A stretch of 48,271 bases of DNA from Prevotella sp. GTDB lineage: Bacteria > Bacteroidota > Bacteroidia > Bacteroidales > Bacteroidaceae. The translations under genes were made by a program, and so were the position numbers. The notes beneath the pieces were generated by a model. The model had not been told where the DNA came from, ran no database searches, and was given only the letters and a program-made list of their open reading frames with translations. This document shows positions 2,443-27,782 of the stretch, piece by piece. Location: contig JAFVHN010000070.1 in the NCBI GenBank assembly GCA_017474515.1, positions 1 to 48,271 of the forward strand, given 5' to 3'. The stretch's first letter is position 1. Every line of letters starts with the position of its first letter.

Positions 2443-2487
2443 GGGCCCGCAATTTGCCTCTGGAAGGTGGATAGCAATATAGGCAGA

Positions 2488-2697
2488 AATTGGTAAAAAA
2501 TCTTGACAAAATGGCAAATTTTTGGGTTGTTTTGTAACGTGTTGATAATCAGTGGGTTTAAAATCGGCTGAGGTTTGACCGCAAATTGAGGGGAGAGATT
2601 TGCCAAATTGAAGGTAGAGAATTGGCAAATTTCTCCCCTCAATTTGCGGTTAAACTTTTTTATGGACGTAAAAAACGTTGAAAAATCTTGACAAAAC
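2488..2697 (-). repeat. Palindromic ~210 bp element, copy 1 (minus orientation)
   Basis: The ends carry the same word in direct orientation, AAAAATCTTGACAAAA (about 2495-2510 and 2681-2696). In the middle an inverted repeat begins TTTGACCGCAAATTGAGGGG (from 2574) and closes with CCCCTCAATTTGCGGTTAAA (ending about 2654). Between the arms are two inverted TTTGCCAA words. An asymmetric stretch with GTTGATAATCA and GTTTAAAAT lies on the left. Four further copies exist in this window. Confidence 0.88.
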
Positions 2698-2747
2698 AGG
2701 CGCTTCGCTAAATGATAATTGCTAAATGATAAAGCCGGCGGCAGTTG

Positions 2748-2812
2748 TAGGAGCCGACGCTATAGGAGCCGACGCTGTAGGAGCCGACGCCTCCGAGCGT
2801 CGGAGTAACTAT
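2748..2812. repeat. GC-rich palindromic repeat with a 15 bp unit in triplicate
   Basis: TAGGAGCCGACGCTA and close variants occur three times head to tail (2748, 2763, 2778). The last copy runs into CTCCGAGCGTCGGAGTAAC, so CCGACGC pairs with GCGTCGG across a six-base loop. It belongs to the repeat family also found at 3020, 3092, 3329, 16184, 16479 and 16872. Confidence 0.85.
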
Positions 2813-3019
2813 ATTTCGCCCCTTGTTCTGCCGAATTTGCAATTCGCGGTTTTCCGTAGGGACATACTTTATGTATGTCCGAAATCACCTGAGAACATCC
2901 GAAAACACGTGATAATGCGGGGCGGGCGGACATACATAAAATAAGTCCATACGCGCATTTTTGTTCTGCCAGATAATTCAGTTGAGCGGGGGAAATTCGC
3001 CTGAACGGGTGCCGAATCG

Positions 3020-3120
3020 TAGGAGCCGACGCAATAGGAGCCGACGCCTCCGAGCGTCGGAGCAACTATATTTTGCCGAGCAATAATATATACTCCGACG
3101 CTTGGAAGCGTCGGCTCCTA
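3020..3120. repeat. GC-rich palindromic repeats, two facing units
   Basis: The first unit (3020-3068) has TAGGAGCCGACGC twice, then CTCCGAGCGTCGGAGCAAC. The second unit (3092-3120) reads ACTCCGACGCTTGGAAGCGT followed by CGGCTCCTA and forms a CGACGCTT/AAGCGTCG hairpin. The units face each other around an AT-rich centre, like a bacterial interspersed mosaic element. No transposase of the REP-associated kind is in the window. Confidence 0.83.
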
Positions 3121-3202
3121 TCGTATCGGTAACTATATTTTGCCGAACAAAAAAGTAAAGTTAGTCCGACTTTGTTCTGCCGAATTTGCAATTCGGCAGA
3201 AG

Positions 3203-3272
3203 TGAGTATCAGCATTTTCAATGCGAAATAAATAGTGTCTTGCGTATCTCGGATTACAAATCCTGATACTCA
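3203..3272. repeat. 70-base inverted repeat, possible structured RNA or hairpin
   Basis: TGAGTATCAG (3203-3212) is exactly complementary to CTGATACTCA (3263-3272). Inside the right half, GGATTACAAATCC can form a small stem of its own. No function is recognised. It sits about 300 bases ahead of the next gene, well upstream of the proposed promoter, so it is not part of that gene's leader. Confidence 0.5.
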
Positions 3273-3328
3273 TGGCAGGCGAATTGCAAATTCGCCTGAA
3301 CGGGGGTTTCGCCGCACAATAATATATA

Positions 3329-3371
3329 GTCCGACGCTTGGAAGCGTCGGCTCCTTATCGGCTCCTATCGT
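3329..3371. repeat. GC-rich palindromic repeat
   Basis: TCCGACGCTTGGAAGCGTCGG followed by CTCCTTATCGGCTCCTATCG. This is a nine-base hairpin of the same family as 3092-3120, with the outer GGCTCCT word duplicated. Confidence 0.8.
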
Positions 3372-3491
3372 ATTTCCGAACGGAATAGATGATTTGGAAA
3401 CAAATATCGCGTATGGGCAACAATGTCAATACTTTATGTTAAGTAGTGCAAAAAAATCCGTTGCAAAGGGGTGAATATGGAAAAAAAGTGC

Positions 3492-3499
3492 TAACTTTG
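3492..3499 (+). promoter_or_regulatory. Probable -7 element (TAACTTTG) for the L7/L12-like adhesin gene
   Basis: TAACTTTG fits the Bacteroidetes -7 consensus TAnnTTTG, and the preceding region is A-rich. No good TTTG lies at the usual 19-22 bp spacing (the nearest TTGC, at 3461, is 28 bp away), so the call is moderate. It would leave a leader of roughly 75 bases. Confidence 0.5.
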
Positions 3500-3579
3500 G
3501 GGTGTTCGAATTACAAAGCCTGTGCACAAAAAAGAATAATATCCCCTAAATAACTAATTATCAACCAATAAGAACTATT

Positions 3580-6500
3580 ATGGAAAAGAAATTTACATTG
3601 TTGCTCCTTGCCTTTCTGGCAATGGCGTTCACGATGCGTGCGGCCCAGCCGCCTGCCGTGCAAAGTATGGAAACGCCCACGTGGAAGGTAACGCTGTTGG
3701 AAATTGGCTCCAGCAAGACGTCAGTCATCCAGGTAGTGAGAAACCATACCGGCCTGGGGCTTATGGAAGCCAAGAGACTTGTGGAGTCGGCGCCCTGTGT
3801 CGTCTTGGAAAACTCCATGTACGAGCCCGCCAAGAGTTTCTACGATGACCTGATTGCTGCGGGAGCCACCGCCGAGCTCACCGACACCGACCCTGGGGGC
3901 GCCACCAACCTCGGTTGGTGCGTTGACCTGTTGGCAGTCGGCAATTCCACCGCTGCCGTCATAGGCGTTCTCAGGAACGAGTTAGGCCTCGGCCTTATGG
4001 AGGCCCGCGAACTCCTCAACTCCCTCCCCGTCAACCTGCTCTACAACGTGTCGCGTGCCCCTGCGCAGAGCCTTTACGACAAACTTGTGAATGTGGGCGC
4101 CCAGGCCAGCATGTACCAGCTGTCGATGACCTTGACGGCACCCACCGACCTGAATGTCAGCGACATCCTGGGCACCAAGGCCACCGTGGGCTGGCAGAAA
4201 GGCGGCACCGAGAACAAGTGGATGATAAGATACGGCATTCCCGAATTTTCCGGCGGTTTTGTCAACCTCACCTTTGATTTCGAGGACAATACCTTGCAGG
4301 GATTGACGCGCATTGACGGCGACGGCGACCATTTTAGCGTAGACGCAGTCAATTCTACCCCCCATGGCGGCGATCACGGCTTGATATCGTGGTGGGGCGA
4401 TGTTACCACCGACAACTGGGCCGTGTTGCCGAAGGTGCCGCTTGGCGGCGAACTGCGCTTCTGGGCTTACTTGGGTGGCTCGGAAGACGAGGCTGTGACG
4501 GTATGGGTTTCCACCACCGGCAACACCAACCCTGCCGACTTCACGCAGGTGTCGGAGGCCATGGTGCCCTCTGCGCCGAAAACCTATGAGGAGTTTGTGG
4601 TGGACCTCAGCGCCTATGCCGGACAGGAGGGCTACATTGCCATCCGCCACACCGACCCGGAAAAATTCAGCGCTTTTTTCGACGACATCACTTACTCCCT
4701 TGAAAGCTCCTTCACCGTTGACAACTGGATGTCGGCGAGGGACATCACTCAAACCTCAACCCAGATTTCGGGCTTGAACCCCGAGACCACATACGCGGTG
4801 CAGGTGTGCGCCACGCAGGGCGACAACATCAGCCCGTGGACCGACGCTGAATTGTTTACGACAAAAACGATTCTTCCACCTCATGACCTCAAGGCCATCG
4901 TGCAGTCGCAGACCGCGGCGAGGCTGGAATGGGAGCCGGGCGGCGAAGAAGACTACAGCATAGTGCGCTGCTGGAAAGACGAGACCCTCTATGATTTTGA
5001 GCGCAGAATCACCTCCGACTGGACATTGACCGATGCCGACGGCGACAGCTATAACTGGAGGCAATACGACGATAATGACGTTCCCCACAGCGGCATTGCC
5101 TACATGTACTCTTGGGGAAGGACCGGTGTTGACAACTGGCTCATCCTTCCCAAGCGCGAGCTGGGCGGGCTCTTTACCGTCTGGGCACGCTGTTATTATT
5201 ATTCCTCTAAGTCCAAATTCGCCATCTATGTGTCAACCACCGGTAAAAATCCGGAGGATTTCACGCAGGTTTCGGATGTTATTGTCGCCGACGATGTCTA
5301 TCGCAATTATTTTGTCATGCTCAACGCCTACGACGGCCAGGAGGGATATGTGGCCATCCGCCACTTTGATTGCGAGACCACGCTGGTGGTTGACGACATC
5401 GGCGTGATACCGGCCGACCAAATCAAGGCCTTCCAGACCGACATGCAGCAGGCCACCTTCAGCACCCTGGAGGCAGACACGCCCTACTGCGCCACGGTGC
5501 AGGGCATAGCCGCCGACAACAGCTTCAAGACCCCCTGGGCCGATGTCATCTCCTTCAGGACCATGGGCGACGTGGTGTTCATGACCGACGGCAACTGGAA
5601 CAACCCCGCATGCTGGTACAACAACCGCGTGCCGCCCGCAGGCAGCAATGTCACCATCAATGCCAATGTGACTATTCCCGCCGGCTACCTGGCCGACGTG
5701 AATACGCTGACCGTGGCTGAGAACGGCCGCGTCATCGTTGCCGACGGCGGACAGCTGAAGCTTGTAAGCTCTAACAGCGACAAGTTTGTGATGCAGAAAC
5801 AAATCCAGGCCAACAAGTACTACTATGTGGGCTGGCCGATGTCCAACGGCGGCCGCATTCCCGACGAAATGCTGGAGGGCAACTACACCCTTGAAACTTT
5901 CAACCAGGGCAAGGGCTGGCAGCGCGCAAGCTTCAACAGCACACTCCGCGGCTTCCAAGCCTACCGCTACTCCAACGACCACGCGCTCACCATCGAGGTG
6001 GAGGGCCAGCCCTACTTCAACTACACGAGGAGTTACTCTCTCTCGTACAACAGCAGTGCCTCCACCTGGCAGGGCTATAACTTCGTGGCAAATCCCTTCC
6101 CCAGCGAGTGCTACGTGACCGAGGACTATGCCGGCACCACGGCGCGGCCCTACTGGCTGATGAACGCCCGCGGCGAACTGGAGCCCGCCTCAGGCCCCAT
6201 AGCACCCCTGCAGGGCTTCTTCGTGAAAGCCAGTGACAGCAACGACATTCTCTACTGCACCACCAAAGTGCCGCAGTACACCGACCCCATCCAGACGCCT
6301 GAGAACCTGACGGCCACCGTGGACCGCAACACCGCCAAGCTCAGCTGGACCGGCCACGACGAGCACAGGTGGAACATCCGCTACCGCGAGGCCGACAACG
6401 GCACCTGGCAATATTGGGACTTTGAGGACGGCACCATGCAGGGCTGGACCTCGCTCGATGCCGACGGCGACGGTTATGGATGGAATTGGTCCCTCAGCTA

Positions 6501-7164
6501 TTATTACTCCCACGGCGGGGATTGTCTTCTTTTCTCCAAATCTTACACTGGCACCGACGACTACCTCATCTCGCCCAAGCTGACACTGGGCGGCGTGTTC
6601 TCCATGTGGGTGAGGGGAAGTTCGAACAAGGAGCATTTCACCGTGTATTACTCGAAGAACAACTGGAACACGGCGCAGTTCAGCCAGGCCTCGCAGGAGT
6701 ATGTGCATGGTACGAGCGCCTACCGGCAGTATTCCATTGACCTAAGCGACATGGATGCCACAGGGCAGGGATACATCATCGTGCGCCACCACAACAGCAC
6801 AAAGGGCAACAACCTTTGCATCGACGACATTTCCTACCTCCTCTACCCCGAAACGGGATATGTGGAAGCCGGGGAGTGGCAGTCGAAAGGCGTACACAGC
6901 AATCCCTTCCGCCTCACCGGGCTGAAGGAGCACACCAAGTATGATGTTCAGGTGCAGGGCATCTTCGCCGGAGAGGGCAGGGTGAGCGACTGGAGCGACA
7001 TTGTGCAGTTCACCACCGCCGGCGGACAGCCCACGGGCATCGTCGATGCTCAGCAGGTGAGCGACAACGACGAGTGGTACTCGGTTGACGGCCAGAAGCT
7101 CAACCAGCGGCCCACCAAGCGCGGACTGTACATTCACAACGGGCAGAAGGTCGTGGTGAGATAA
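3580..7164 (+). CDS. Exported protein with two L7/L12-like domains and nested Fn3/cleaved-adhesin modules
   Basis: A 1194-residue secreted protein. Residues 1-22 are a signal peptide (KK, hydrophobic core, AAQ). Residues 34-101 and 112-181 each match the C-terminal domain of ribosomal protein L7/L12 (VIQVVRNHTGLGLMEAKRLV and VIGVLRNELGLGLMEARELL). Three modules follow (about 186-430, 432-665, 905-1150). In each, a fibronectin type III domain begins with its first strands (for example APTDLNVSD...TVGWQKGG), is interrupted by a ~160-residue cleaved-adhesin/choice-of-anchor-J domain (FDFEDNTLQGLTRIDGDGD...NWAVLPKV...GYIAIRHTD), and then resumes (ISGLNPETTYAVQV...FTT). Residues ~665-900 are a beta-rich region of the kind found in surface proteins. 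The tail (residues 1165-1194: WYSVDGQKLNQ, RGLYI, GQKVVVR) is like that of the two LRR proteins downstream. Likely surface-exposed or released; ligand unknown. Transcribed alone. Confidence 0.85.
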   Translation: MEKKFTLLLLAFLAMAFTMRAAQPPAVQSMETPTWKVTLLEIGSSKTSVIQVVRNHTGLGLMEAKRLVESAPCVVLENSMYEPAKSFYDDLIAAGATAELTDTDPGGATNLGWCVDLLAVGNSTAAVIGVLRNELGLGLMEARELLNSLPVNLLYNVSRAPAQSLYDKLVNVGAQASMYQLSMTLTAPTDLNVSDILGTKATVGWQKGGTENKWMIRYGIPEFSGGFVNLTFDFEDNTLQGLTRIDGDGDHFSVDAVNSTPHGGDHGLISWWGDVTTDNWAVLPKVPLGGELRFWAYLGGSEDEAVTVWVSTTGNTNPADFTQVSEAMVPSAPKTYEEFVVDLSAYAGQEGYIAIRHTDPEKFSAFFDDITYSLESSFTVDNWMSARDITQTSTQISGLNPETTYAVQVCATQGDNISPWTDAELFTTKTILPPHDLKAIVQSQTAARLEWEPGGEEDYSIVRCWKDETLYDFERRITSDWTLTDADGDSYNWRQYDDNDVPHSGIAYMYSWGRTGVDNWLILPKRELGGLFTVWARCYYYSSKSKFAIYVSTTGKNPEDFTQVSDVIVADDVYRNYFVMLNAYDGQEGYVAIRHFDCETTLVVDDIGVIPADQIKAFQTDMQQATFSTLEADTPYCATVQGIAADNSFKTPWADVISFRTMGDVVFMTDGNWNNPACWYNNRVPPAGSNVTINANVTIPAGYLADVNTLTVAENGRVIVADGGQLKLVSSNSDKFVMQKQIQANKYYYVGWPMSNGGRIPDEMLEGNYTLETFNQGKGWQRASFNSTLRGFQAYRYSNDHALTIEVEGQPYFNYTRSYSLSYNSSASTWQGYNFVANPFPSECYVTEDYAGTTARPYWLMNARGELEPASGPIAPLQGFFVKASDSNDILYCTTKVPQYTDPIQTPENLTATVDRNTAKLSWTGHDEHRWNIRYREADNGTWQYWDFEDGTMQGWTSLDADGDGYGWNWSLSYYYSHGGDCLLFSKSYTGTDDYLISPKLTLGGVFSMWVRGSSNKEHFTVYYSKNNWNTAQFSQASQEYVHGTSAYRQYSIDLSDMDATGQGYIIVRHHNSTKGNNLCIDDISYLLYPETGYVEAGEWQSKGVHSNPFRLTGLKEHTKYDVQVQGIFAGEGRVSDWSDIVQFTTAGGQPTGIVDAQQVSDNDEWYSVDGQKLNQRPTKRGLYIHNGQKVVVR

Positions 7165-17092: not shown

Positions 17093-17124
17093 TTTGTCGG
17101 TTTCATGAAAAAACCGTACCTTTG
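17093..17124 (+). promoter_or_regulatory. Promoter of the BspA-like gene (TTTG - 20 bp - TACCTTTG)
   Basis: A full match to the Bacteroidetes consensus: TTTG 17093-17096 and TACCTTTG 17117-17124. Transcription should start near 17131, which rules out the in-frame ATG at 17105 and supports the ATG at 17150. Confidence 0.8.
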
Positions 17125-17149
17125 TGCCTGCAAACACAAAATTATAATT

Positions 17150-20100
17150 ATGAGAAAAATCAACCAATTCATTACGCTTGCGGTGCTGCTTGTATTGATG
17201 GCATCGCGCGCCGCCGGACAGACCTACACTTACGACGTCTTCAACTATGAACTCAATGAGGCGGGCAGCGAGACCTATGCCTACATCACGGGCCTGGCCT
17301 ACATCTCCTCGTCGGTGAGCAACATCACCATTCCCGGTTCCATTGAGCACAACGGTGTCAGCTATTCCACCGTTATCGCTCCTAACGCCTTCAAGGGCTG
17401 CACCAACCTTACCGACGTTAAGGTGAGCTATGGCTGCCGCATCATCTTCAGCAATGCCTTCAATTTGTGTGTCAGCTTGAAGACATTGCGCCTGCCGAGC
17501 AGCATCACGGCCGTTTACGACCACATCGTGAACGGCGCGGCGCAGAACGGCCTTACCGTCTATTCAGCCTTGAAACCTGAGACCAACACCCACTACGGCG
17601 CCTGGAGCGGCATCCCAAAGAACAAAAGCCGCTTCTATACCTATTGTGAAGACGTGAGAAGCCAGTTTGAATCGAACACCGAGTATTCCAACAACTTCTG
17701 CGAGATACTGACGGAGAGCACACCCCAGTATTGCTTCGACTACTCCAACACGCGCGGGCAGAAGCAATGCTACGTCGTCACCAAGCCCTCCACGACAACC
17801 ACCGACGGTGAGATGATGCTCATCGGCACTATTCCAGAGTTGGGAAAAGACATGGAGGTGGGCATCGACAATACCGGCTATATGTTTGCCGACTATCAGG
17901 TGACGGGCCACAAGACTTACGTCACGCAGGTCATGGCCCGTGCTTACTTACAGAGAAACGCTACCAAGTTCTCGTGCACCAGCAGCAGGCTGAAGGAAAT
18001 AGGCCGTGATGCCTTCCGCCAATGCCACAACCTGCAGAGCGTTGACATCGATGCCTCGCAGGCCACCATCGCCATCGGGGCTTTCTGTGAGTGCGAGCAA
18101 CTGAAAAGCGTCAAGGTGAACACCCGCGAAATTGGCGACTACGCTTTTTGGGACTGTTACAACATGGAAGAGCTGACGCTCGAAGAAGGCGTGGAAAGCA
18201 TCGAGGGATATTCTTTCGCGGATTGCGGCTCGCTGACGGAGCTGAACATTCCGGCATCGCTCAAAACACTGATTAGTTATCGGGTTGACTATAATGCGTC
18301 AACGAGCTATTATACCTATGGCGGTTTCCGCGATTTGCTCAACCTGAAGAAAATAACGGTGGCTGAAGGCAATACGGTATTTAGTTCCTTTGACAACGTT
18401 CTTTACAACAAAGCGAAAAGCACCATGCTGTTTTGTCCATGCAACATCGACATCATCCCCACTTTCCCGGAAACACTGTTGGATATTGAATTTTCGGCTC
18501 TCTTCGGTATTCGTAATAAAAACTGGAAGGTGTTGGAGATACCCTACGGAGTGAGGAATATATGGTCGCACGCCATCGACAGTCCGTTTTTTCAATACAT
18601 CAAGACACCTTCCACCGCACACGTTGACCCAATGGGCATTATATTCAATTACGATTGCAACTGTAATCATGAGGCAACGGTGTGCCTTGGCAAAGCGGAG
18701 TATTCGTTTACCGAGAACAACGTATTGAATTTTGTCTATAACCCCGGAAGACTGTATGTTCCAGCCGGCGACCACCAGCCGGCGACCATTTCTGGCCATG
18801 CTGCCTTGAAACGGAATTTCGACAATTATTACGACGATGAAGTAATCAATATCACCTACGGCGCCTACGACGTGCTGACCGAGTACGGCATCCCCCTGCT
18901 GCTCGACAAGGAAACGAAGACGGCCAAGGTGGTCTATGGCCGTTTCGACAAGGACTACACGGCGATGCTTTCGGGAGATATTGTCATTCCCCAATCCTAC
19001 GAATATCGCGGCTACACCTATACCGTCACCGCCATCGACATGCACGCCTTTGAGGGGAACCAGAACATCACCTCGATTACGATTCCCTCAACGGTGACTT
19101 CTTTCATCGGCTCCACCAGCATGCAGTATGAAGGGGCTGAGGAAGACGGATGCCAGTTCAAGACCTGCATCAGTTTGAGAAATGTCAATCTGCCGAGAAA
19201 TATCACGAAAATTCCCAACAACTGCTTCTATGCCAACAAACTCAGTGAAATGCGACTGCCCTACGGCATTGACAACATCGGCTATAAGGCGTTTGCCAAA
19301 AACCCGGAGCTTATTTCGCTTTTTGTGCCCAGTTCCGTCAAGGAAAGGGGCAGTGTTGACCAGACCTTCATCGATGATTGCTCAAAGCTGAACAACCTCT
19401 ACATGAATACCACGCCCGACGTGGTGCTGTTCAGCGGCTCCAGCTTCTTCCCCAATGTAAAGACAAGTTGCAGGCTGAGAGTGCCCGTGGGGAAATATAG
19501 CTCTTTCTACATCGCGCAAGGGTGGCGGCACTTCAATACGATAAAAAGCGGCAGCTATGACTTTTCTTATTCCGGAGGTGGCGTATATAGCGTGAAGAGC
19601 ATGGGCTCTAACGGCAATCCCGGACAGGTGGTCAAGGTGTTTAACTGTGACGACGATGGCAGTTATAACAGCGGTGGAATTGGCGTGCCAATCAACATCC
19701 CCGAGACGGTGAGCGACAGCTGGGGACGGACCTTCAAGGTGGTGGAACTGGGCGACTCGTGCATGGCTGGGTCGCATCGCTCCACATCGGTTACCATTCC
19801 CGCCACGGTGCAAAAAATTGGCTCGCAGGCCATGAAGGACATGACCTTGTTGCAATCCGTCACCACAAAGATGACCACCCTGCCGAATATGGGCACCAAC
19901 GTGTGGCAAAATGTCAACCAGGCCAACGTGCAGCTCTTCTTCCCCGAAGGCATGTATGAGGCTTACAGCACCGCTTCCCAGTGGAAGAATTTCTACATCG
20001 AGGAGCCGCTGACAATCTATGACCTCACGGTGAACGACACGAAGGTGACCAGCGTGAACCGCTCCAACATTCCCGTTACCAGCGGCCATGCCAGCTATGA

Positions 20101-20845
20101 CCATGTGACGAAAACGCTGACGCTCAACAATGCCGTCATCGATTGTGCGGCACGCGGCGAGGAGGTTGCTCCCCTTATTAGCAACATCGACGGGCTGACC
20201 ATCAACTTCGAGGGCAACTGCCGCATCACGGGAAGTTCGGTGGCTGCATTGGCGCTTTGGGGAACCTCCACCACGCTCAACGTTACGGGCAACACGGTGA
20301 TAGAAGCGAAATACGGCGTCACGGGAAATCCGTCCGACGGCTACAGCCTCGACGGCATCGTATGCAATGGCAACGTCACGCTGACGGGCGGCGGAAAACT
20401 CACCATCGATGTTGATTGCGACGGCATCTACAACTATGGCAGGTTCATCGTCGATGACGTATTCCTTGAGGTGCAAAGCAGCGATCGAACGGCATTCTCG
20501 AAAGGAGAACTGAGGCTGAATCTGAGAAATACCGGCAGTCTGGCATTGAAGGGGCACACTGGCGCAATGAAGAACTGCTCCTTCGCCTCATATTATGACT
20601 TTGTCGTTATGGAGCCCATCGGTGCCAGCTACAGCTACTGGGTAGGATTTGTTGATACCAACGGAAACCTCATCACGGACAGGTGGTTGATTCTCAGCCT
20701 TCCACAGACGCCCACTGGTCTTCCCTCTGCCTCCTCTGAGTCCTCTGAGCCCTCTGTGCTCTACAACCTTCAGGGCCAGCGCGTGAACCAGCCACGGCAG
20801 CGCGGCGTTTACATCCGCGACGGCAAGAAGGTGCTGGTGAAATAA
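17150..20845 (+). CDS. BspA-like secreted leucine-rich-repeat protein
   Basis: A 1231-residue protein. The start was placed at the ATG that follows the promoter and begins a good signal peptide (MRKINQFITLAVLLVLMASRAAGQ). Most of the chain is BspA-type LRR_5 repeats of ~23 residues of the form IGxxAFxxCxxLxxVxIPxSV, for example IGRDAFRQCHNLQSVDID and IGDYAFWDCYNMEELTL, in several blocks between residues 60 and 930. Residues ~957-1165 form a different beta-rich domain (YDLTVNDTKVTSVN, LTLNNAVIDC, GIYNYGRFIVDDVFLEV) that is shared with the next gene's N-terminus. The tail YNLQGQRVNQ...RGVYIRDGKKVLVK resembles the tail of the adhesin-like protein at 3580. BspA proteins of oral Bacteroidetes bind host proteins and other bacteria; binding partner here unknown. 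33 bases separate it from the next gene, so a two-gene operon is likely. Confidence 0.88.
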   Translation: MRKINQFITLAVLLVLMASRAAGQTYTYDVFNYELNEAGSETYAYITGLAYISSSVSNITIPGSIEHNGVSYSTVIAPNAFKGCTNLTDVKVSYGCRIIFSNAFNLCVSLKTLRLPSSITAVYDHIVNGAAQNGLTVYSALKPETNTHYGAWSGIPKNKSRFYTYCEDVRSQFESNTEYSNNFCEILTESTPQYCFDYSNTRGQKQCYVVTKPSTTTTDGEMMLIGTIPELGKDMEVGIDNTGYMFADYQVTGHKTYVTQVMARAYLQRNATKFSCTSSRLKEIGRDAFRQCHNLQSVDIDASQATIAIGAFCECEQLKSVKVNTREIGDYAFWDCYNMEELTLEEGVESIEGYSFADCGSLTELNIPASLKTLISYRVDYNASTSYYTYGGFRDLLNLKKITVAEGNTVFSSFDNVLYNKAKSTMLFCPCNIDIIPTFPETLLDIEFSALFGIRNKNWKVLEIPYGVRNIWSHAIDSPFFQYIKTPSTAHVDPMGIIFNYDCNCNHEATVCLGKAEYSFTENNVLNFVYNPGRLYVPAGDHQPATISGHAALKRNFDNYYDDEVINITYGAYDVLTEYGIPLLLDKETKTAKVVYGRFDKDYTAMLSGDIVIPQSYEYRGYTYTVTAIDMHAFEGNQNITSITIPSTVTSFIGSTSMQYEGAEEDGCQFKTCISLRNVNLPRNITKIPNNCFYANKLSEMRLPYGIDNIGYKAFAKNPELISLFVPSSVKERGSVDQTFIDDCSKLNNLYMNTTPDVVLFSGSSFFPNVKTSCRLRVPVGKYSSFYIAQGWRHFNTIKSGSYDFSYSGGGVYSVKSMGSNGNPGQVVKVFNCDDDGSYNSGGIGVPINIPETVSDSWGRTFKVVELGDSCMAGSHRSTSVTIPATVQKIGSQAMKDMTLLQSVTTKMTTLPNMGTNVWQNVNQANVQLFFPEGMYEAYSTASQWKNFYIEEPLTIYDLTVNDTKVTSVNRSNIPVTSGHASYDHVTKTLTLNNAVIDCAARGEEVAPLISNIDGLTINFEGNCRITGSSVAALALWGTSTTLNVTGNTVIEAKYGVTGNPSDGYSLDGIVCNGNVTLTGGGKLTIDVDCDGIYNYGRFIVDDVFLEVQSSDRTAFSKGELRLNLRNTGSLALKGHTGAMKNCSFASYYDFVVMEPIGASYSYWVGFVDTNGNLITDRWLILSLPQTPTGLPSASSESSEPSVLYNLQGQRVNQPRQRGVYIRDGKKVLVK

Positions 20846-20878
20846 TAGAAAAAATAAAAAGAACGATTGTTTACTAAA

Positions 20879-22792
20879 ATGTTTTTTGACATGACACATT
20901 ATCATTCTTCCCGCTCCTTGCGGCTGATGATGTTGTCGGCACTGCTGATGCTGGCCGGCATCTCTTCTGCCGAGACCTACTTTGGTTTCAAAATAGGAGG
21001 CGTGCCGGTGACCAGCAACAACCTTGGCGGCCTTGTAGGAGACCACATCAAGCGATGTGACCCCAGCAAGCCGTGCTACGTCTGGTACGACCGTTTTGAC
21101 AAAATTGTAACGCTTGAGAATGTGAAGATAGAGCGCACGGGCAGCGACAACCGCGCCATCTTCAACGAATCTTGCGAGGGACTGATAGTAAGGCTTGTGG
21201 GCAAGAACTATCTCTCGTCCGAAAGTGCGGCCCCCGTGCGCCTTCAGAGGAACACCACATTGTGGCTCGTCGGCGACAGCGTTACCATTGTGGGCGGCTC
21301 AGAGGACGGCATTTACATCACCAACCATAGCACCCTTGACATAGTGGGCGACGCTCCGCTCACGGTGACGGCCACCGGCAGCTCAGCCATTGAGGGCAGC
21401 GACGCAAACACCAGGGCCACGGTGAACTTCATGTGCGGCGACGTTATCCTGGAAGGCAAGAAGGGCGACCTGGTGGATGTCAACGCCACTTTCAACCAAA
21501 GCTACTCCCTGTTTGACAAACCAACGGTGACGCCGCGCTGCATGGTGACGATGAAGCCTTCGGACAACTATTCCCAGCCCAGCGTGCAGAACAGTCCCAT
21601 CACACTGTATGGCACTCCCGCCTCGCTCATCCTTGCACCCTGGGGAGCCACCGTCGGCGGCAACAGCATTATTATCAACAATGTGAAAGTCTATGGCAGC
21701 GACATCATCATCGGCAACCGCTATGTGGCCCTTCTTACCGAAGACTATTTCCCCGACAAGAAATTCCGCGAGCAGCTGTTGGCCAAATTCCCCCAGCACT
21801 ACATTACCGAGGACGACGTGAACCAGTGTACTTCGCTCAACCTCAGCGGGAAAGGCATTCTGTCGCTAACGGGCATCGGCTATTTCACCGCCTTGACATC
21901 CCTGCAGTGCCAGCTTAACAATGGCATGGGAACGCTCGACCTGTCGGCCAACACCGCACTTTCCAGCCTCAACTGCGTAGGTTGCACCCTTACTTCGCTC
22001 ACCTTGGGCGCAAATAAGAACCTCAAGACACTGGACTGTTCGAGCAATCAGCTCAGCACGTTCGACATCAGCGGCTGCACGGGGCTTAGCGTCCTGAACT
22101 GCGCAAACAACAAACTGACGGCTTTGTCACTGACAACCAACAAGAACCTTACGAGACTGGACTGCAGCGACAATCAGCTGCCGTCGCTCAACGTGAGCAA
22201 GTGCAAGGCGCTTACCGAGATTGCCTGTTATAACAACAAGTTCACCTCGCTCAGCGTCACCGGCCTGCCCGTGCTTAAGGTTCTGAACTGTTCCAACAAC
22301 CCGCTTCTGAAAACCTTCAACTGCTACGAAAATCCCCAGCTTTCCACGCTGTCGATGTGGGGCATGGCAAAGCTTGAAACCTTCGACTGCCACGGATGTG
22401 CGCTGACCTCGCTGACCATTCCCTCCACCTCGTCGCTTCGCCAGCTGACCTGCTATCAGAACAAAATCAGCGGAACGGCCATGAACTCTCTGGTGCAGCA
22501 ACTGTACAACCGTAGCGGCACCACCACCGGGCAGTTCGTCGTGTGGGCAAATGCCGACGGCGAGCAGAACGCCATCACTGAGCAGCAGGCACTGGCGGCC
22601 ATGGAAAAGAACTGGAACGTGGTTGACAATAACGGCTCGCCCATCTACGATTTCACGCCCACCGCCGTTCCTTCCGTTCCGTTGTCAACGCAACAACCTG
22701 AACCCCAGTACAACCTGCAAGGTCAGCGCGTAAACCAGCCGCAACGGCGCGGCATCTACATCCGTAGCGGCAAGAAGGTGGTGCTGAAATAA
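20879..22792 (+). CDS. Secreted leucine-rich-repeat protein, partner of the BspA-like gene
   Basis: About 637 residues from the ATG at 20879. The ATG at 20891 is equally possible and gives a tidier signal peptide (MTHYHSSRSLRLMMLSALLM...SSA). The N-terminal ~250 residues are a beta-helix-like domain (VTLENVKIERT, LWLVGDSVTIVGGSEDGIYI) homologous by eye to the C-terminal domain of the preceding protein. From about residue 317 come ~20-residue leucine-rich repeats of the internalin-like type LxxLDCSxNxLxxLxxSxC, with a conserved Cys in most repeats. The tail YNLQGQRVNQ...RGIYIRSGKKVVLK is almost the same as its neighbour's. Probably cell-surface and co-expressed with the BspA-like protein. A terminator follows. 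Confidence 0.85.
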   Translation: MFFDMTHYHSSRSLRLMMLSALLMLAGISSAETYFGFKIGGVPVTSNNLGGLVGDHIKRCDPSKPCYVWYDRFDKIVTLENVKIERTGSDNRAIFNESCEGLIVRLVGKNYLSSESAAPVRLQRNTTLWLVGDSVTIVGGSEDGIYITNHSTLDIVGDAPLTVTATGSSAIEGSDANTRATVNFMCGDVILEGKKGDLVDVNATFNQSYSLFDKPTVTPRCMVTMKPSDNYSQPSVQNSPITLYGTPASLILAPWGATVGGNSIIINNVKVYGSDIIIGNRYVALLTEDYFPDKKFREQLLAKFPQHYITEDDVNQCTSLNLSGKGILSLTGIGYFTALTSLQCQLNNGMGTLDLSANTALSSLNCVGCTLTSLTLGANKNLKTLDCSSNQLSTFDISGCTGLSVLNCANNKLTALSLTTNKNLTRLDCSDNQLPSLNVSKCKALTEIACYNNKFTSLSVTGLPVLKVLNCSNNPLLKTFNCYENPQLSTLSMWGMAKLETFDCHGCALTSLTIPSTSSLRQLTCYQNKISGTAMNSLVQQLYNRSGTTTGQFVVWANADGEQNAITEQQALAAMEKNWNVVDNNGSPIYDFTPTAVPSVPLSTQQPEPQYNLQGQRVNQPQRRGIYIRSGKKVVLK

Positions 22793-24939: not shown

Positions 24940-25122
24940 ATGAAGACAGCCATCATGCGCAACATCATTACCGGGGCCGAGCGGCGCGTTCACCTCACGT
25001 TGGACCATCCCGCCGTGCAGTGCGGCATTGCCGTCTGGGTGGACGACGAGGGCCGTGCCTATTTCCCCGAGGACGTGCAGAACCCCTTCTACGAGCTGCG
25101 CGACGTGAACGACACCCCATGA
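24940..25122 (+). CDS. 60-residue protein of unknown function, coupled to the helicase gene
   Basis: Not recognised. It is basic at the N-terminus and acidic at the C-terminus (MKTAIMRNIITGAERRVHLT ... VWVDDEGRAYFPEDVQNPFYELRDVND). No signal peptide, no membrane segment, no cysteine pair beyond one Cys. GC content and codon use match the helicase rather than the toxin-antitoxin pair. It starts 25 bases after higA, and its stop codon overlaps the helicase start (ATGA), which argues that it is real and made together with the helicase. It could be a small partner or regulator of it; no function can be assigned. Confidence 0.65.
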   Translation: MKTAIMRNIITGAERRVHLTLDHPAVQCGIAVWVDDEGRAYFPEDVQNPFYELRDVNDTP

Positions 25123-27782
25123 GCGCGCCGGAGCAAGCGAAACACTATGACCCGTGGCAGCAACAGGTGATTGATGCCACGGGCGGATACCATCTTGTGC
25201 TGGCTGCACCCGGATGCGGAAAGACCGAGGTGCTGGCTGAGCGCATACGGCGAGCCGCAGAAAGGGGCATCGCTTTTGACGACATGCTCTGCCTGACCTT
25301 CACCAACCGTGCCGCACGAAGCATGGCCGACCGCGTGAGGAGCATGTCGCAGGGAGTGGAGGGCCTCTATGTGGGAAACATCCACCGCTACTGCTCAAAA
25401 CTGCTTTTCGAGCAGGGCATCATGCCCGTGGAGTCGTCGGTCATTGACGAGGAGGACAGCATCAGCATCCTGGCAGACATCATGAACGGCGACGAGCTGA
25501 AAATGCTTGCCGACACCCGCCAGCGCCACCGTTGCAGCCAGGCCGTCAACCTCTCGCATTTCATGCACCAGTATCGTGGCAATTACAGCCGCGAGCTCAT
25601 CGTTCATGCCGATGCCGTGGAGCCAAAGGCCATGAAGGCCGTGTGCGACATCCTGCGACGGCCGTACACCCGGCAGGGTATCGCCCAGATATATGCCGAC
25701 ATCGAAGAACTGGCACCCCTGAAAGAACTCAGCCTGCGCGACGACACCCGCGAGCTGGTGCAGATGATGTGGGCGGCAAAGCGATATACCGACTACAAAC
25801 GGCAGCACGACCTGCTCGATTTCGAGGACCTGCTGCTCAGGGTTTATGAGCTGCCGGAAGGGCAGTTGAGAAAGTACCACTGGATTCAGGTGGACGAAAT
25901 TCAGGACCTCAACCCCCTGCAAATTGCCATCATCGACCGCTTCACGGCCTCCGATGAGGCTTTCACGGTGATGTATTTGGGCGACAACCAGCAGGCCATT
26001 TTCTCGTTTATGGGCGCACAGATGCAGACCCTTCAGGCATTGTTCAGCCGCTGCCACCCCGAAACGGGCATCCACCACCTCAGCCGCAACTACCGCTCGC
26101 CGCGATATTTGCTCGACATCTTCAATGAATATGGAAAAACGGCGCTCGGCATCGACCCGCGGCTGCTTCCGCAAAGCGACGACAACGCCGCCCACGAGCC
26201 GGAAGACCTGCAGATACTGATGAGCGACAACAACATTGACGAGGCCAACGACGTGGCGCAACTCGTGGCCGACCTGACGCGGCAACACCCCTCGCAGACC
26301 ACCGCCGTCATCGTGAGCTATAACAGCGAGGCCGACGAGATGAGCGCGGCACTCAAGGCCGTTGGCGTGGAACATTTCAAGGTGTCGGGGCGCGACGTCT
26401 TTTCCGAACCTGACGTAAAAATGCTGCTCGCCCACGTCAGCGTATTGTGGAACAGCCGCAATTTCATTGCATGGTCGAGGCTGCTGACAGGCTTGAAAAT
26501 CGTGGCCTCTCACGCCGCCGCCCGAGAATTTGTGAGAAAGCTTATGAACACGGCCATGAACGTAAGCGACCTGTTGCGCACCGACGGCAAAACCGCCCTC
26601 ATGCACTTCGTGGAAGCCTACGCGCAGAGCGACATCATCGTGTTCGACACCGAGACCACGGGGCTTAGCATTCTTGACGACGACATCGTGCAGATTGCCG
26701 CCGTGAGGCTGCGCCGGGGGCAAGTGGTGGCCGGGCCGTTCAATGTCTTCATAGAGAGCCGCCGCGACATTCCGCCCATGCTGGGTGACCTGCCCAACCC
26801 CCTAATTGAGGAATATGGCCGCCAACCCCACACCGCGCCTCGCGACGCCTTTGCCGCTTTCCTCGACTTTGCCAAGGGCGGCGTGTTGCTGGCCCATAAT
26901 GCCACTTTCGATTATCACATCCTTGACAACAACCTCAGGCGACATTGTGGCACGGACGACCTGCGGCTGTTGCATCCCTTCTGCCTCGACTCACTCGAAA
27001 TCATCCGCCTTTTGTCACCACGCCTGAAGAGCCACAAGCTGAAAGACCTGCTCGCCGCCTTCAACCTGGAGGGGCAAAACTCCCACATGGCCGACGACGA
27101 CATCATGGCCACCGTGAGCCTGGTGCGCCATTGTTATGAACAAGCTCAGCACTTCTTGCCACTTCAACGCGAAATCCTCGACACCCACCGGCGTCTGGCC
27201 GTGAAGTTCCGTGCCGCCTATTTGCCGCTCTATGACCACGGCTGCGACATGCTTCACCGTGCTTTTCCCGAAGACGAGCCGCCTGCGCTGGTCACCGAGC
27301 TGGCCTACGCCTACAACTGGCTGAAGGAGCACAAGTTCATTCACCCCGTGGAAAAACTCCAACACCTCATGGCATATCTGGCGCAAGACGTGGTGGAACG
27401 CGGGGAGCGCACGCTCGCCGAGCAGCTGCAGCACCACTTGGCCGACATCAACACCTACAAGGAGAGCGACCTTTGCGGCAGCACCAGCATGACCGAGCGC
27501 GTCTTCGTGAGCACCGTTCACAAGGCCAAGGGGCTGGAGTTCGACAATGTGGTGATTTACGACGTCACCGACGGCAACTATCCGGGCTTTTTCACGCGCC
27601 AACATCCCGGACGGATGGAAGAAGAACGTCGCCGCTTCTATGTGGCCATCAGCCGTGCCCGCCGCCGACTGTTCCTGGCCTGGAGTGCCACGAAAATCAA
27701 CCAATACGGACGTGTGTTCAGCACCCATCTGTCACAGTTCACTCTCCCCATCCAGCGTTTCTTCCTCATGCGCCGCGCCTGA
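25119..27782 (+). CDS. UvrD/PcrA-like SF1A helicase with an inserted DEDDh 3'-5' exonuclease domain
   Basis: 887 residues from the ATG that overlaps the preceding stop; the frame is open further upstream but that stretch is the shadow of the small gene. Helicase motifs: Q-like PWQQQVIDA, Walker A APGCGKT (K35, T36), motif Ia TFTNRAA, motif II VDEIQD (D259, E260), motif III GDNQQAIFSFMGA, motif IV HLSRNYRSP, motif V VSTVHKAKGLEFDNVVI, motif VI VAISRARR (R846, R848). Between motif IV and V, around residues 505-690, sits a DnaQ/RNase T-like exonuclease with all DEDDh residues: D510 and E512 in FDTETTG, D598 in NATFDYHIL, H656 and D661 in HMADDD. One chain therefore can unwind and degrade DNA. 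A DNA-repair or recombination role is likely; a defence role is possible. A terminator follows. Confidence 0.9.
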   Translation: MSAPEQAKHYDPWQQQVIDATGGYHLVLAAPGCGKTEVLAERIRRAAERGIAFDDMLCLTFTNRAARSMADRVRSMSQGVEGLYVGNIHRYCSKLLFEQGIMPVESSVIDEEDSISILADIMNGDELKMLADTRQRHRCSQAVNLSHFMHQYRGNYSRELIVHADAVEPKAMKAVCDILRRPYTRQGIAQIYADIEELAPLKELSLRDDTRELVQMMWAAKRYTDYKRQHDLLDFEDLLLRVYELPEGQLRKYHWIQVDEIQDLNPLQIAIIDRFTASDEAFTVMYLGDNQQAIFSFMGAQMQTLQALFSRCHPETGIHHLSRNYRSPRYLLDIFNEYGKTALGIDPRLLPQSDDNAAHEPEDLQILMSDNNIDEANDVAQLVADLTRQHPSQTTAVIVSYNSEADEMSAALKAVGVEHFKVSGRDVFSEPDVKMLLAHVSVLWNSRNFIAWSRLLTGLKIVASHAAAREFVRKLMNTAMNVSDLLRTDGKTALMHFVEAYAQSDIIVFDTETTGLSILDDDIVQIAAVRLRRGQVVAGPFNVFIESRRDIPPMLGDLPNPLIEEYGRQPHTAPRDAFAAFLDFAKGGVLLAHNATFDYHILDNNLRRHCGTDDLRLLHPFCLDSLEIIRLLSPRLKSHKLKDLLAAFNLEGQNSHMADDDIMATVSLVRHCYEQAQHFLPLQREILDTHRRLAVKFRAAYLPLYDHGCDMLHRAFPEDEPPALVTELAYAYNWLKEHKFIHPVEKLQHLMAYLAQDVVERGERTLAEQLQHHLADINTYKESDLCGSTSMTERVFVSTVHKAKGLEFDNVVIYDVTDGNYPGFFTRQHPGRMEEERRRFYVAISRARRRLFLAWSATKINQYGRVFSTHLSQFTLPIQRFFLMRRA

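What the first reader, a model, noticed from the sequence alone, without database searches (positions are those of the whole stretch)
3679..4122. Two ribosomal L7/L12-like C-terminal domains at the head of a secreted protein
Directly behind a signal peptide, residues 34-101 and 112-181 carry the L7/L12 CTD pattern, including TGLGLMEAKRLVESAP in the first, which is nearly the E. coli TGLGLKEAKDLVESAP. Several positions used by the ribosomal domain to contact elongation factors (Lys, Ile, Arg of the first helix, Lys of the second) are kept in copy 1 but mostly lost in copy 2. The ribosomal fold has apparently been duplicated and exported as a binding module. I know of no described function for this outside the ribosome.
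Basis: partly seen in the sequence, partly recalled or inferred. Interest (0 to 1): 0.85.

Follow-up and report, generated by a model that had tools for sequence, protein, structure and literature searches.

The report
Ribosome stalk domains on exported adhesins
A gut Prevotella protein that is made for export carries two copies of a small domain otherwise known as the tip of the ribosome's factor-catching stalk, and relatives show that this domain has become a reusable building block of exported, adhesin-like proteins.

Summary
ORF 3580-7164 (1194 aa) has a signal peptide ending at AA^Q and two PF00542 (bL12 C-terminal) domains, at residues 36-100 (67.1 bits) and 115-177 (41.1 bits; cut-off 25.9). 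Cleaved-adhesin/choice-of-anchor-J repeats, fn3 and a 42-residue tail follow; the tail has the motifs published for short type IX secretion signals of Prevotella intermedia.

I collected 28 exported-type genes with this module, in one to four copies and at varying positions, one of them before a GH8 domain. It was found in 15 of 398 sampled genomes of the genus and in nine genomes of five other genera of the family. No exported form turned up in the order or phylum samples beyond the own genome.

The exported domains keep core positions but lose ribosome-invariant lysines (K70 in 25 of 48; K100 in 1 of 48) and fall outside the branch of the sampled rplL. In copy 1 of window-type proteins the conserved half has moved from helices 4/5 to strand 2-helix 6-strand 3 plus DTDP.

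Most likely a ribosomal fold was co-opted as an extracellular recognition or spacer module; the ligand is unknown. Ten literature searches, three of them partly blind, showed no exported L12 domain.

The parts
3580..7164 (+). Gene for the 1194-aa exported protein (stop codon included)
   Evidence: Open frame; relatives of the whole protein, with three L12 copies instead of two, in three named MAGs
3580..3645 (+). Signal peptide, predicted cleavage AA^Q (residue 22/23)
   Evidence: Own heuristic scan, SignalP not available; Gln at +1 agrees with the Bacteroidetes Q-rule (PMC5837995, abstract start)
3685..3879 (+). bL12 C-terminal-like domain, copy 1 (residues 36-100)
   Evidence: PF00542, 65.8-67.1 bits
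3883..3894 (+). DTDP extension directly behind copy 1, invariant in 5 of 5 window-type proteins
   Evidence: Alignments
3922..4110 (+). bL12 C-terminal-like domain, copy 2 (residues 115-177), more diverged
   Evidence: PF00542, 40.4-41.1 bits
4729..4842 (+). Fibronectin type III domain, best stretch (residues 384-421)
   Evidence: PF00041, 56.3 bits for the protein, two stretches
4993..5400 (+). Choice-of-anchor J domain, best NCBIfam stretch (residues 472-607); three stretches in the protein
   Evidence: NF038128, 182.1 bits
6421..6834 (+). Cleaved-adhesin domain, best Pfam stretch (residues 948-1085); three stretches in the protein
   Evidence: PF07675, 108.9 bits
7036..7161 (+). C-terminal tail of 42 residues, PT/GI..WYSVDGQKL..RGLYIHNGQKVVVR, probably a short T9SS signal
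   Evidence: The last 45 residues recur at the end of 8 further ORFs among five stretches of the same genome; cleavage site PT/GI and motifs B, D and E as described for P. intermedia short CTDs (PMC11969387, passages; compared by eye)

Best explanation
The protein is an exported, adhesin-type multidomain protein of a gut (probably rumen) Prevotella. [quoted passage not shown] Its two N-terminal domains have the bL12 C-terminal fold but have left translation: they belong to a set of exported L12-like domains that is shuffled between surface proteins. The fold is kept as a compact, stable recognition module. In copy 1 the conserved surface is no longer the helix 4/helix 5 face that catches translation factors but the strand 2-helix 6-strand 3 side with its DTDP extension, which probably contacts a new partner: another domain of the same protein, a cell-surface protein or a glycan. 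Shown: the domains, a signal-peptide-like N-terminus, the companions, the distribution in the samples and the conservation shift in copy 1. Inferred: the fold (from homology), T9SS export, the binding function and the ligand.
For: Domains and companions. Export: the signal-peptide heuristic is positive in 24 of 28 exported-type genes; the four negatives (L153, L167, L170, L171) have an unfetched, cut or unclear start. SprA_N scores 769.2 bits in the own genome. The tail recurs at the end of 8 other own-genome ORFs and has the PT/GI site and motifs of P. intermedia short CTDs (PMC11969387, passages). In 61 family genomes, those matching the body-plus-tail profile carry SprA in 32 of 34 cases, the others in 6 of 27 (Fisher p 4.5e-9). 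Reusable module: 28 genes; Pfam was run on 27 of them, with PF07675 over cut-off in 15, carbohydrate-binding Cthe_2159 in 2, GH8 in 1, dockerin in 2 and LRR in 3. Function changed: in 48 exported domains K65 22, K70 25, K84 29, K95 15, K81 13, K120 8 and K100 1 are kept, against 99-101 of 101 ribosomal domains, while P91 is kept in 48 and A83 in 45. Face moved: in copy 1 of five window-type proteins, invariant positions are 8 of 28 in helices 4/5 and 16 of 29 behind them. With the near-copy L035 left out, 0 of 4000 random ribosomal sets, and 0 of the 2186 with similar identity, were as extreme. Separate from rplL: the 40 ribosomal rows lie on one side of a branch (support 72/87).
Against: No structure could be predicted and no ligand or expression data are available. 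The NCBIfam run listed no T9SS tail model for the protein. The shift of the conserved face is not general: it is absent in copy 2 of the same proteins (6 of 28 against 4 of 29) and in clade J with six members (658 of 4000 random sets as low). The random sets draw from unrelated lineages, whereas the clades are close kin. Helix 4/5 positions I/V69 (45 of 48) and K/R73 (43 of 48) stay conserved, and 10 of 28 genes keep all five factor-face residues in at least one copy, so old-face binding is not excluded for relatives. A 65-residue domain resolves a tree poorly: the exported domains need two label changes, not one; only 2% of 200 bootstrap trees have them in one group; and nine of the 36 (L148, L151-L153) sit nearest the ribosomal side. 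G159, 100% complete, has tail matches but no SprA.
Confidence: 0.55

Rival explanations
1. The domains are a passive spacer or stability unit: a small soluble fold that holds the adhesin domains away from the surface or helps them fold, with no ligand of its own.
For: Copy number varies from one to four and position varies between proteins. Copy 2 is little conserved across window-type proteins. The four body relatives read in the own genome have no L12 match (one of them is cut at its N-terminus by the contig end).
Against: Copy 1 of window-type proteins has a conserved, partly polar and aromatic stretch (LEN..Y.PAK..YD and DTDP), more constrained than a spacer would seem to need.
Confidence: 0.25
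2. The domains still catch translation factors: they dock on EF-Tu or EF-G that is displayed on, or released from, other cells or the same cell.
For: 10 of 28 genes keep K65, I/V69, K70, K/R73 and K84 together in at least one copy, and 16 of 28 keep K70, K/R73 and K84. Surface EF-Tu is reported in other bacteria (PMC6822514, search listing and abstract start).
Against: The window protein has neither K70 nor K81 in either copy. K65, K70 and K84 are kept in only 22, 25 and 29 of 48 exported domains, against 101 of 101 ribosomal ones. In copy 1 the conserved face lies elsewhere.
Confidence: 0.07
3. The domains act inside the envelope during export, as a removable leader or a handle for a periplasmic chaperone or the secretion machine.
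For: In the window and its orthologues they lie directly behind the signal peptide.
Against: In other proteins the domain lies in the middle or just before the tail, and none of the eight other own-genome ORFs with the tail has an L12 match.
Confidence: 0.08
4. Assembly or gene-calling artefact: an rplL fragment joined to an adhesin gene.
For: The genome is a draft of 118 contigs in which no rplL was found.
Against: One uninterrupted frame; the same plan, with three copies, in three named MAGs; both copies differ from the rplL sampled here.
Confidence: 0.02

Closest known systems
Ribosomal protein bL12 (L7/L12), C-terminal domain, PF00542 / 1ctf
   Same: Domain length, core positions (V68, L80, A83, L86, P91, A103, G114) and the GLGL.EAK.LVESAP stretch; significant profile and sequence matches
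   Different: No L12 N-terminal domain among the Pfam matches, a signal peptide in front, adhesin domains behind, invariant lysines lost, neighbours not rplJ or rpoB
bL12-domain proteins of phages (PMC6375957; passages and section 10 read)
   Same: A bL12 domain at varying positions inside larger, unrelated proteins of up to 724 aa; homologues exist without it
   Different: According to the paper those domains keep residues that contact elongation factors, and one was found in ribosomes; the passages seen do not describe them as exported
HTH-ClpS/ribosomal L7/L12-domain membrane proteins (PMC12419801; passages read)
   Same: A domain of this fold class fused to other domains outside the ribosome
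   Different: Single-TM proteins with the domain on the cytoplasmic side, beside a Lipocone gene
Cleaved-adhesin / choice-of-anchor J proteins of Bacteroidota
   Same: Three such stretches, fn3 domains and a C-terminal tail in the window protein
   Different: The four body relatives read in the own genome have no L12 match
Non-exported L12-domain proteins of other Bacteroidales families (L141-L144) and a 104-aa one (L154)
   Same: PF00542 outside rplL, sometimes in tandem
   Different: No signal peptide seen, some with membrane segments by eye; domains of L141-L143 form their own branch and L154 sits near the ribosomal ones, in a weakly resolved tree (L144 was not in it)

Membership tests
PF00542 domain family (bL12 C-terminal domain) | Profile match above the curated cut-off | tested here: met
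   67.1 and 41.1 bits against 25.9
PF00542 domain family (bL12 C-terminal domain) | Alpha/beta fold of 1ctf | not testable with these tools
   Structure prediction switched off; only a sequence match to 1ctf, E 1.4e-8
Ribosomal protein bL12 (functional) | N-terminal dimerisation domain that binds uL10 | tested here: not met
   No such family among the 11 listed for the whole protein at E up to 1; a signal peptide stands there
Ribosomal protein bL12 (functional) | Invariant K65, K70, K84 of the factor face | tested here: not met
   Copy 1 has K, Q, K; copy 2 has T, G, R; ribosomal domains have Lys in 101 of 101 at each
Ribosomal protein bL12 (functional) | Gene beside rplJ and rpoB | tested here: not met
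   Neighbours are MgtC and a DUF4011 helicase
T9SS cargo | Sec signal peptide | tested here: met
   Own heuristic scan; SignalP was not available
T9SS cargo | Long C-terminal sorting domain (TIGR04183 type) | tested here: not met
   Not among the four NCBIfam families listed at E up to 1; this is one of two published kinds of signal
T9SS cargo | Short CTD of the P. intermedia kind: PT/GI site, motif B (Tyr, Gly, basic), GxYI, basic end | tested here: met
   Window tail PT/GI...WYSVDGQKL...RGLYIHNGQKVVVR, 42 residues, against the description in PMC11969387 (passages); compared by eye, not with their HMM
T9SS cargo | T9SS present in the genome | tested here: met
   SprA_N 769.2 bits; other components not searched
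Cleaved-adhesin / choice-of-anchor J protein | Profile match above cut-off | tested here: met
   PF07675 108.9 bits (cut-off 21.4), NF038128 182.1 bits (cut-off 30)
ClpS-like adaptor | N-degron binding pocket | not tested
   Considered from recall; PMC12419801 names a joint ClpS/L7/L12 domain (passages)

The most novel reading that the evidence does not exclude
Exported stalk domains that still act as factor catchers: L12-like domains on a surface adhesin dock on elongation factors displayed on or leaking from neighbouring cells, so that a translation contact has become a cell-cell adhesion contact. The window protein is at best a weak case (K70 lost in both copies), but ten relatives (L033, L035, L036, L080, both L038 genes, L147, L149, L166, L169) keep the five factor-face residues in one copy.
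Probability: 0.06. Interest if true: 0.9.

Novelty: new variant of a known kind. Interest (0 to 1): 0.6.

Why it matters
bL12 is a textbook ribosomal protein whose C-terminal domain is thought of as dedicated to catching translation factors. A set of exported versions of this domain, shuffled into adhesins, a glycoside hydrolase and very large surface-type proteins of gut Prevotella and relatives, shows that a core ribosomal fold can be recycled as an extracellular module, and it offers a testable case of how a binding face is replaced. There is a practical side as well: the NCBI equivalog model for L7/L12 exceeds its cut-off on at least five of these proteins, so they may be named as 50S ribosomal proteins.

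Tried and rejected
Matches below the PF00542 cut-off in ORFs of 253-264 aa were read in three loci (L042, L043, L044) and are SDR-type dehydrogenases by their look (recognised from recall). They were left out, as were other sub-cut-off hits, most of them unread. A first regular-expression search for the domain in the fetched loci failed and was replaced by a profile. tblastn against plasmids (51 records, 20 listed) and phages (16 records) gave no annotated feature other than L7/L12 (plus an sRNA label in two phage rows); unannotated places were not read. A TANFOR link for the ~4800-aa proteins was considered; TIGR02542 was not among the families listed for L151 and the idea was dropped. The genome-collection scan with the body of the protein gave four loci, all of which belong to proteins with L12 domains in the copies that I read.

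For clade M no identity-matched ribosomal set existed. G159 has tail matches without SprA, and G184 and G156 matched the body-plus-tail profile outside the tail only in the rows listed, so the 32-of-34 count is not purely the tail. The 101 ribosomal domains are the best-scoring loci, not a random draw.

Full report
OBSERVATION. The ORF at 3580-7164 on the + strand encodes 1194 residues. Pfam finds PF00542 (bL12 C-terminal domain) twice; the two segments, scanned alone, score 67.1 and 41.1 bits against a cut-off of 25.9. The same two places are the only PF00542 matches in the draft genome G000 (3.5 Mb, 118 contigs, 88% complete); its rplL was not found, presumably because it is missing from the draft. 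Against solved structures the pair matches L7/L12 or bL12 chains only (15 distinct sequences at E up to 0.01), among them 1ctf at E 1.4e-8. The N-terminus looks like a signal peptide with Gln after the predicted cut, as the Bacteroidetes Q-rule would have it (PMC5837995, abstract start). Behind the domains lie three cleaved-adhesin/choice-of-anchor-J stretches, fn3 and a short tail.

NEIGHBOURHOOD. Upstream are a GH9 enzyme at the window start and MgtC; downstream is a DUF4011 helicase. ARAGORN found no tRNA gene in the window. Two further window ORFs (17105-20845 and 20867-22792, both leucine-rich-repeat proteins) end in a similar tail (E 2.8e-6 and 1e-5).

RELATIVES. With PF00542 I searched 150 and then 398 genomes of the genus and 201 of the family, and with a profile of exported domains 89 of the order and 99 of the phylum. 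Each sample includes G000. All genomes of the family sample with more than one match (G000 aside), and one odd single match, were searched again for places; so were 22 of the genus sample. Weak single matches in the genus sample (E above 1e-5) were mostly not read. The exported type (long ORF, above cut-off) was found in 15 of 398 genus genomes: G000, G017, G018, G061, G084, G085, G141, G583, G585, G612, G668, G717, G745, G746, G763. G676 was left out because its 790-aa protein has no signal peptide by the scan. In the 201-genome family sample the exported type was found in nine genomes of five other genera (G215, G226, G263, G264, G277, G290, G302, G305, G347) besides G000. Many of these genomes are incomplete, so the counts are lower bounds. 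In the order sample five other genomes had more than one match: four in proteins without a visible signal peptide (G383, G408, G412, G416) and one in a second 125-aa frame that I did not read (G401). In the phylum sample no other genome had a second match. Named relatives of the whole protein are three Prevotella/Prevotellaceae MAGs, one from water-deer rumen by its title and one called RUG14668. The host is therefore probably a rumen-type Prevotella; the window's own species is not known.

ARCHITECTURES. I collected 28 exported-type genes; the G305 gene was seen only in part and is not among them. Of these, 24 pass my signal-peptide heuristic; the other four are L153 (start not fetched), L167, L170 and L171 (start unclear or cut). 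By the script's patterns 16 end in the short GxY..GxK tail, four in a dockerin-like end, and eight in neither; of these eight some are cut or end oddly. Copy number per gene runs from one to four. Pfam was run on 27 of 28 (all but L153): PF07675 over cut-off in 15 (window, L033, L035, L036, both L038 genes, L039, L080, L145, L146, L149, L150, L169, L170, L172), Cthe_2159 over cut-off in L147 and L168, GH8 in L040, Dockerin_1 over cut-off in L150 and L167, LRR in L151, L152 and L173. The domain stands behind the signal peptide (window, L033, L040, L149, L167, L173), between other domains (L038, L145, L146), before the tail (L034, L037, L147, L168, L171) or at the very end (L151, L152, L153). 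It is therefore a mobile module, not part of one fixed protein.

EXPORT ROUTE. The genome encodes SprA (769.2 bits). The tail recurs at the end of eight other ORFs in the five stretches of this genome that were compared, and none of those ORFs has an L12 match. Its last 42 residues, with the two before them, read PT/GIVDAQQVSDNDEWYSVDGQKLNQRPTKRGLYIHNGQKVVVR, which fits the short T9SS signals described for Prevotella intermedia: about 40-55 residues, cleavage at PT/GI, Tyr and Gly in motif B with a basic residue, GxY followed by Ile, basic end (PMC11969387, passages; compared by eye). In that paper 48 of 80 predicted cargo have short signals, and five short-signal cleavage sites were determined. 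In 61 family genomes, 34 matched the body-plus-tail profile and 38 had SprA; 32 had both, 2 only the first (G159, G184), 6 only SprA, 21 neither (Fisher p 4.5e-9). Related genomes are not independent, and the profile also contains adhesin domains. The NCBIfam run listed no T9SS tail model.

WHAT CHANGED IN THE DOMAIN. Forty-eight exported domains were compared with 101 ribosomal ones, the latter being the best-scoring loci of four searches (a first pass with 36). Core positions stay: P91 48/48, A83 45/48, I/V69 45/48. Ribosome-invariant lysines go: K84 29/48, K70 25/48, K65 22/48, K95 15/48, K81 13/48, K120 8/48, K100 1/48. Cys92 appears in 27/48 against 4/101. Ten of 28 genes keep K65, I/V69, K70, K/R73 and K84 together in at least one copy; the window protein does not. 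PMC6753160 states that the C-terminal domain binds IF2, EF-Tu, EF-G and RF3 through a conserved, positively charged site in helices 4 and 5 (passages); which single residues count is recalled.

A MOVED FACE IN COPY 1. Among the five window-type copy-1 domains (window, L033, L035, L036, L080), 8 of 28 positions are invariant in 63-90 (helices 4 and 5) and 16 of 29 in 92-120 (strand 2, helix 6, strand 3), followed by an invariant DTDP. Random sets of ribosomal domains lean the other way (mean difference +0.13 to +0.15). With the near-copy L035 removed, the window-type value (-0.23) was not reached by any of 4000 random sets, nor by any of the 2186 with similar identity. Clade D (0 of 4000; 0 of 828 identity-matched) and clade M (1 of 4000; no identity-matched set) lean the same way; clade J with six members does not (658 of 4000). 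Copy 2 does not either. These are small sets of related sequences, so I read the result as a strong lead for copy 1, not as a rule for all exported domains.

ORIGIN. In a tree of 82 domains (40 of the 101 ribosomal, 36 exported, 6 non-exported; 67 columns, few for so many rows) the ribosomal rows lie on one side of a branch with support 72/87, as in 75% of 200 bootstrap trees. The exported ones need two label changes, and nine of them (L148, L151-L153) sit nearest the ribosomal side. The window's copies lie in an unresolved fork among exported domains; copy 2 is a long branch and its place is unsure. One or several origins of the exported domains are both possible.

LITERATURE. Ten searches of the open full-text library were answered; none of the listed papers was seen to describe exported bL12 domains, but most were seen only as listing lines, three searches were partly blind to the spelling L7/L12, and most subscription papers are not held. 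Closest are PMC6375957 (passages and section 10): bL12 domains at varying positions in phage proteins of up to 724 residues, with homologues lacking the domain; PMC12419801 (passages): an HTH fused to a ClpS-ribosomal L7/L12 domain on the cytoplasmic side of a membrane protein; and PMC8283722 (passages): one cyanobacterial orthocaspase listed with Ribosomal_L12. In the passages seen of a 2024 review of extraribosomal functions of bacterial ribosomal proteins, bL12 is credited beyond the ribosome only with autoregulation in complex with uL10 (PMC10931766).

CONCLUSION. The finding is real and is more than one odd gene: a set of exported bL12-like domains is used as a building block by Prevotella and near relatives. 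Its most likely role is recognition at or beyond the cell surface, with a new contact face in copy 1; a pure spacer is the main rival.

Noticed in passing
window 3580-7164; L080, L151, L167, L173: The NCBI equivalog model TIGR00855 (50S ribosomal protein L7/L12, cut-off 84.4) scores 88.8 on the window protein, 115.9 on L080, 122.7 on L151, 98.2 on L167 and 166.3 on L173, so automatic annotation may name these surface-type proteins as ribosomal. Other members scanned (e.g. L034, L038, L040, L147) score below it.
   Followed up: partly
window 2450-3560: The 1.1-kb gap before the gene is dense in direct and inverted repeats (seven direct families of 16-58 nt, 13 inverted pairs), of unknown nature.
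   Followed up: no
L141-L144 and L154: Proteins without a visible signal peptide, some with membrane segments, carry one to three L12-like domains in other families of the order and as a 104-aa protein in G202: a second, non-exported extra-ribosomal group.
   Followed up: partly
L165 2682-5051: A 790-aa protein without a signal peptide by the scan, with a C-terminal domain close to rplL (78.8 bits), which looks like a later capture of rplL.
   Followed up: no
L151, L152, L153: Proteins of about 4800 aa (L151 and L152 with signal peptide and leucine-rich repeats; L153 start not fetched) end in three, four and one L12-like domains.
   Followed up: partly
L040 5767-7395: A signal peptide, one L12-like domain and a GH8 catalytic domain in one frame cut by the contig end; here the L12-like domain stands where a binding module would be expected.
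   Followed up: no
window 25020-27782: UvrD-type helicase whose C-terminal part holds an RNase_T exonuclease domain at residues 540-701.
   Followed up: no
exported domains (28 genes), position 92 in E. coli bL12 numbering: A cysteine directly after the invariant proline in 27 of 48 exported domains against 4 of 101 ribosomal ones; role unknown.
   Followed up: no
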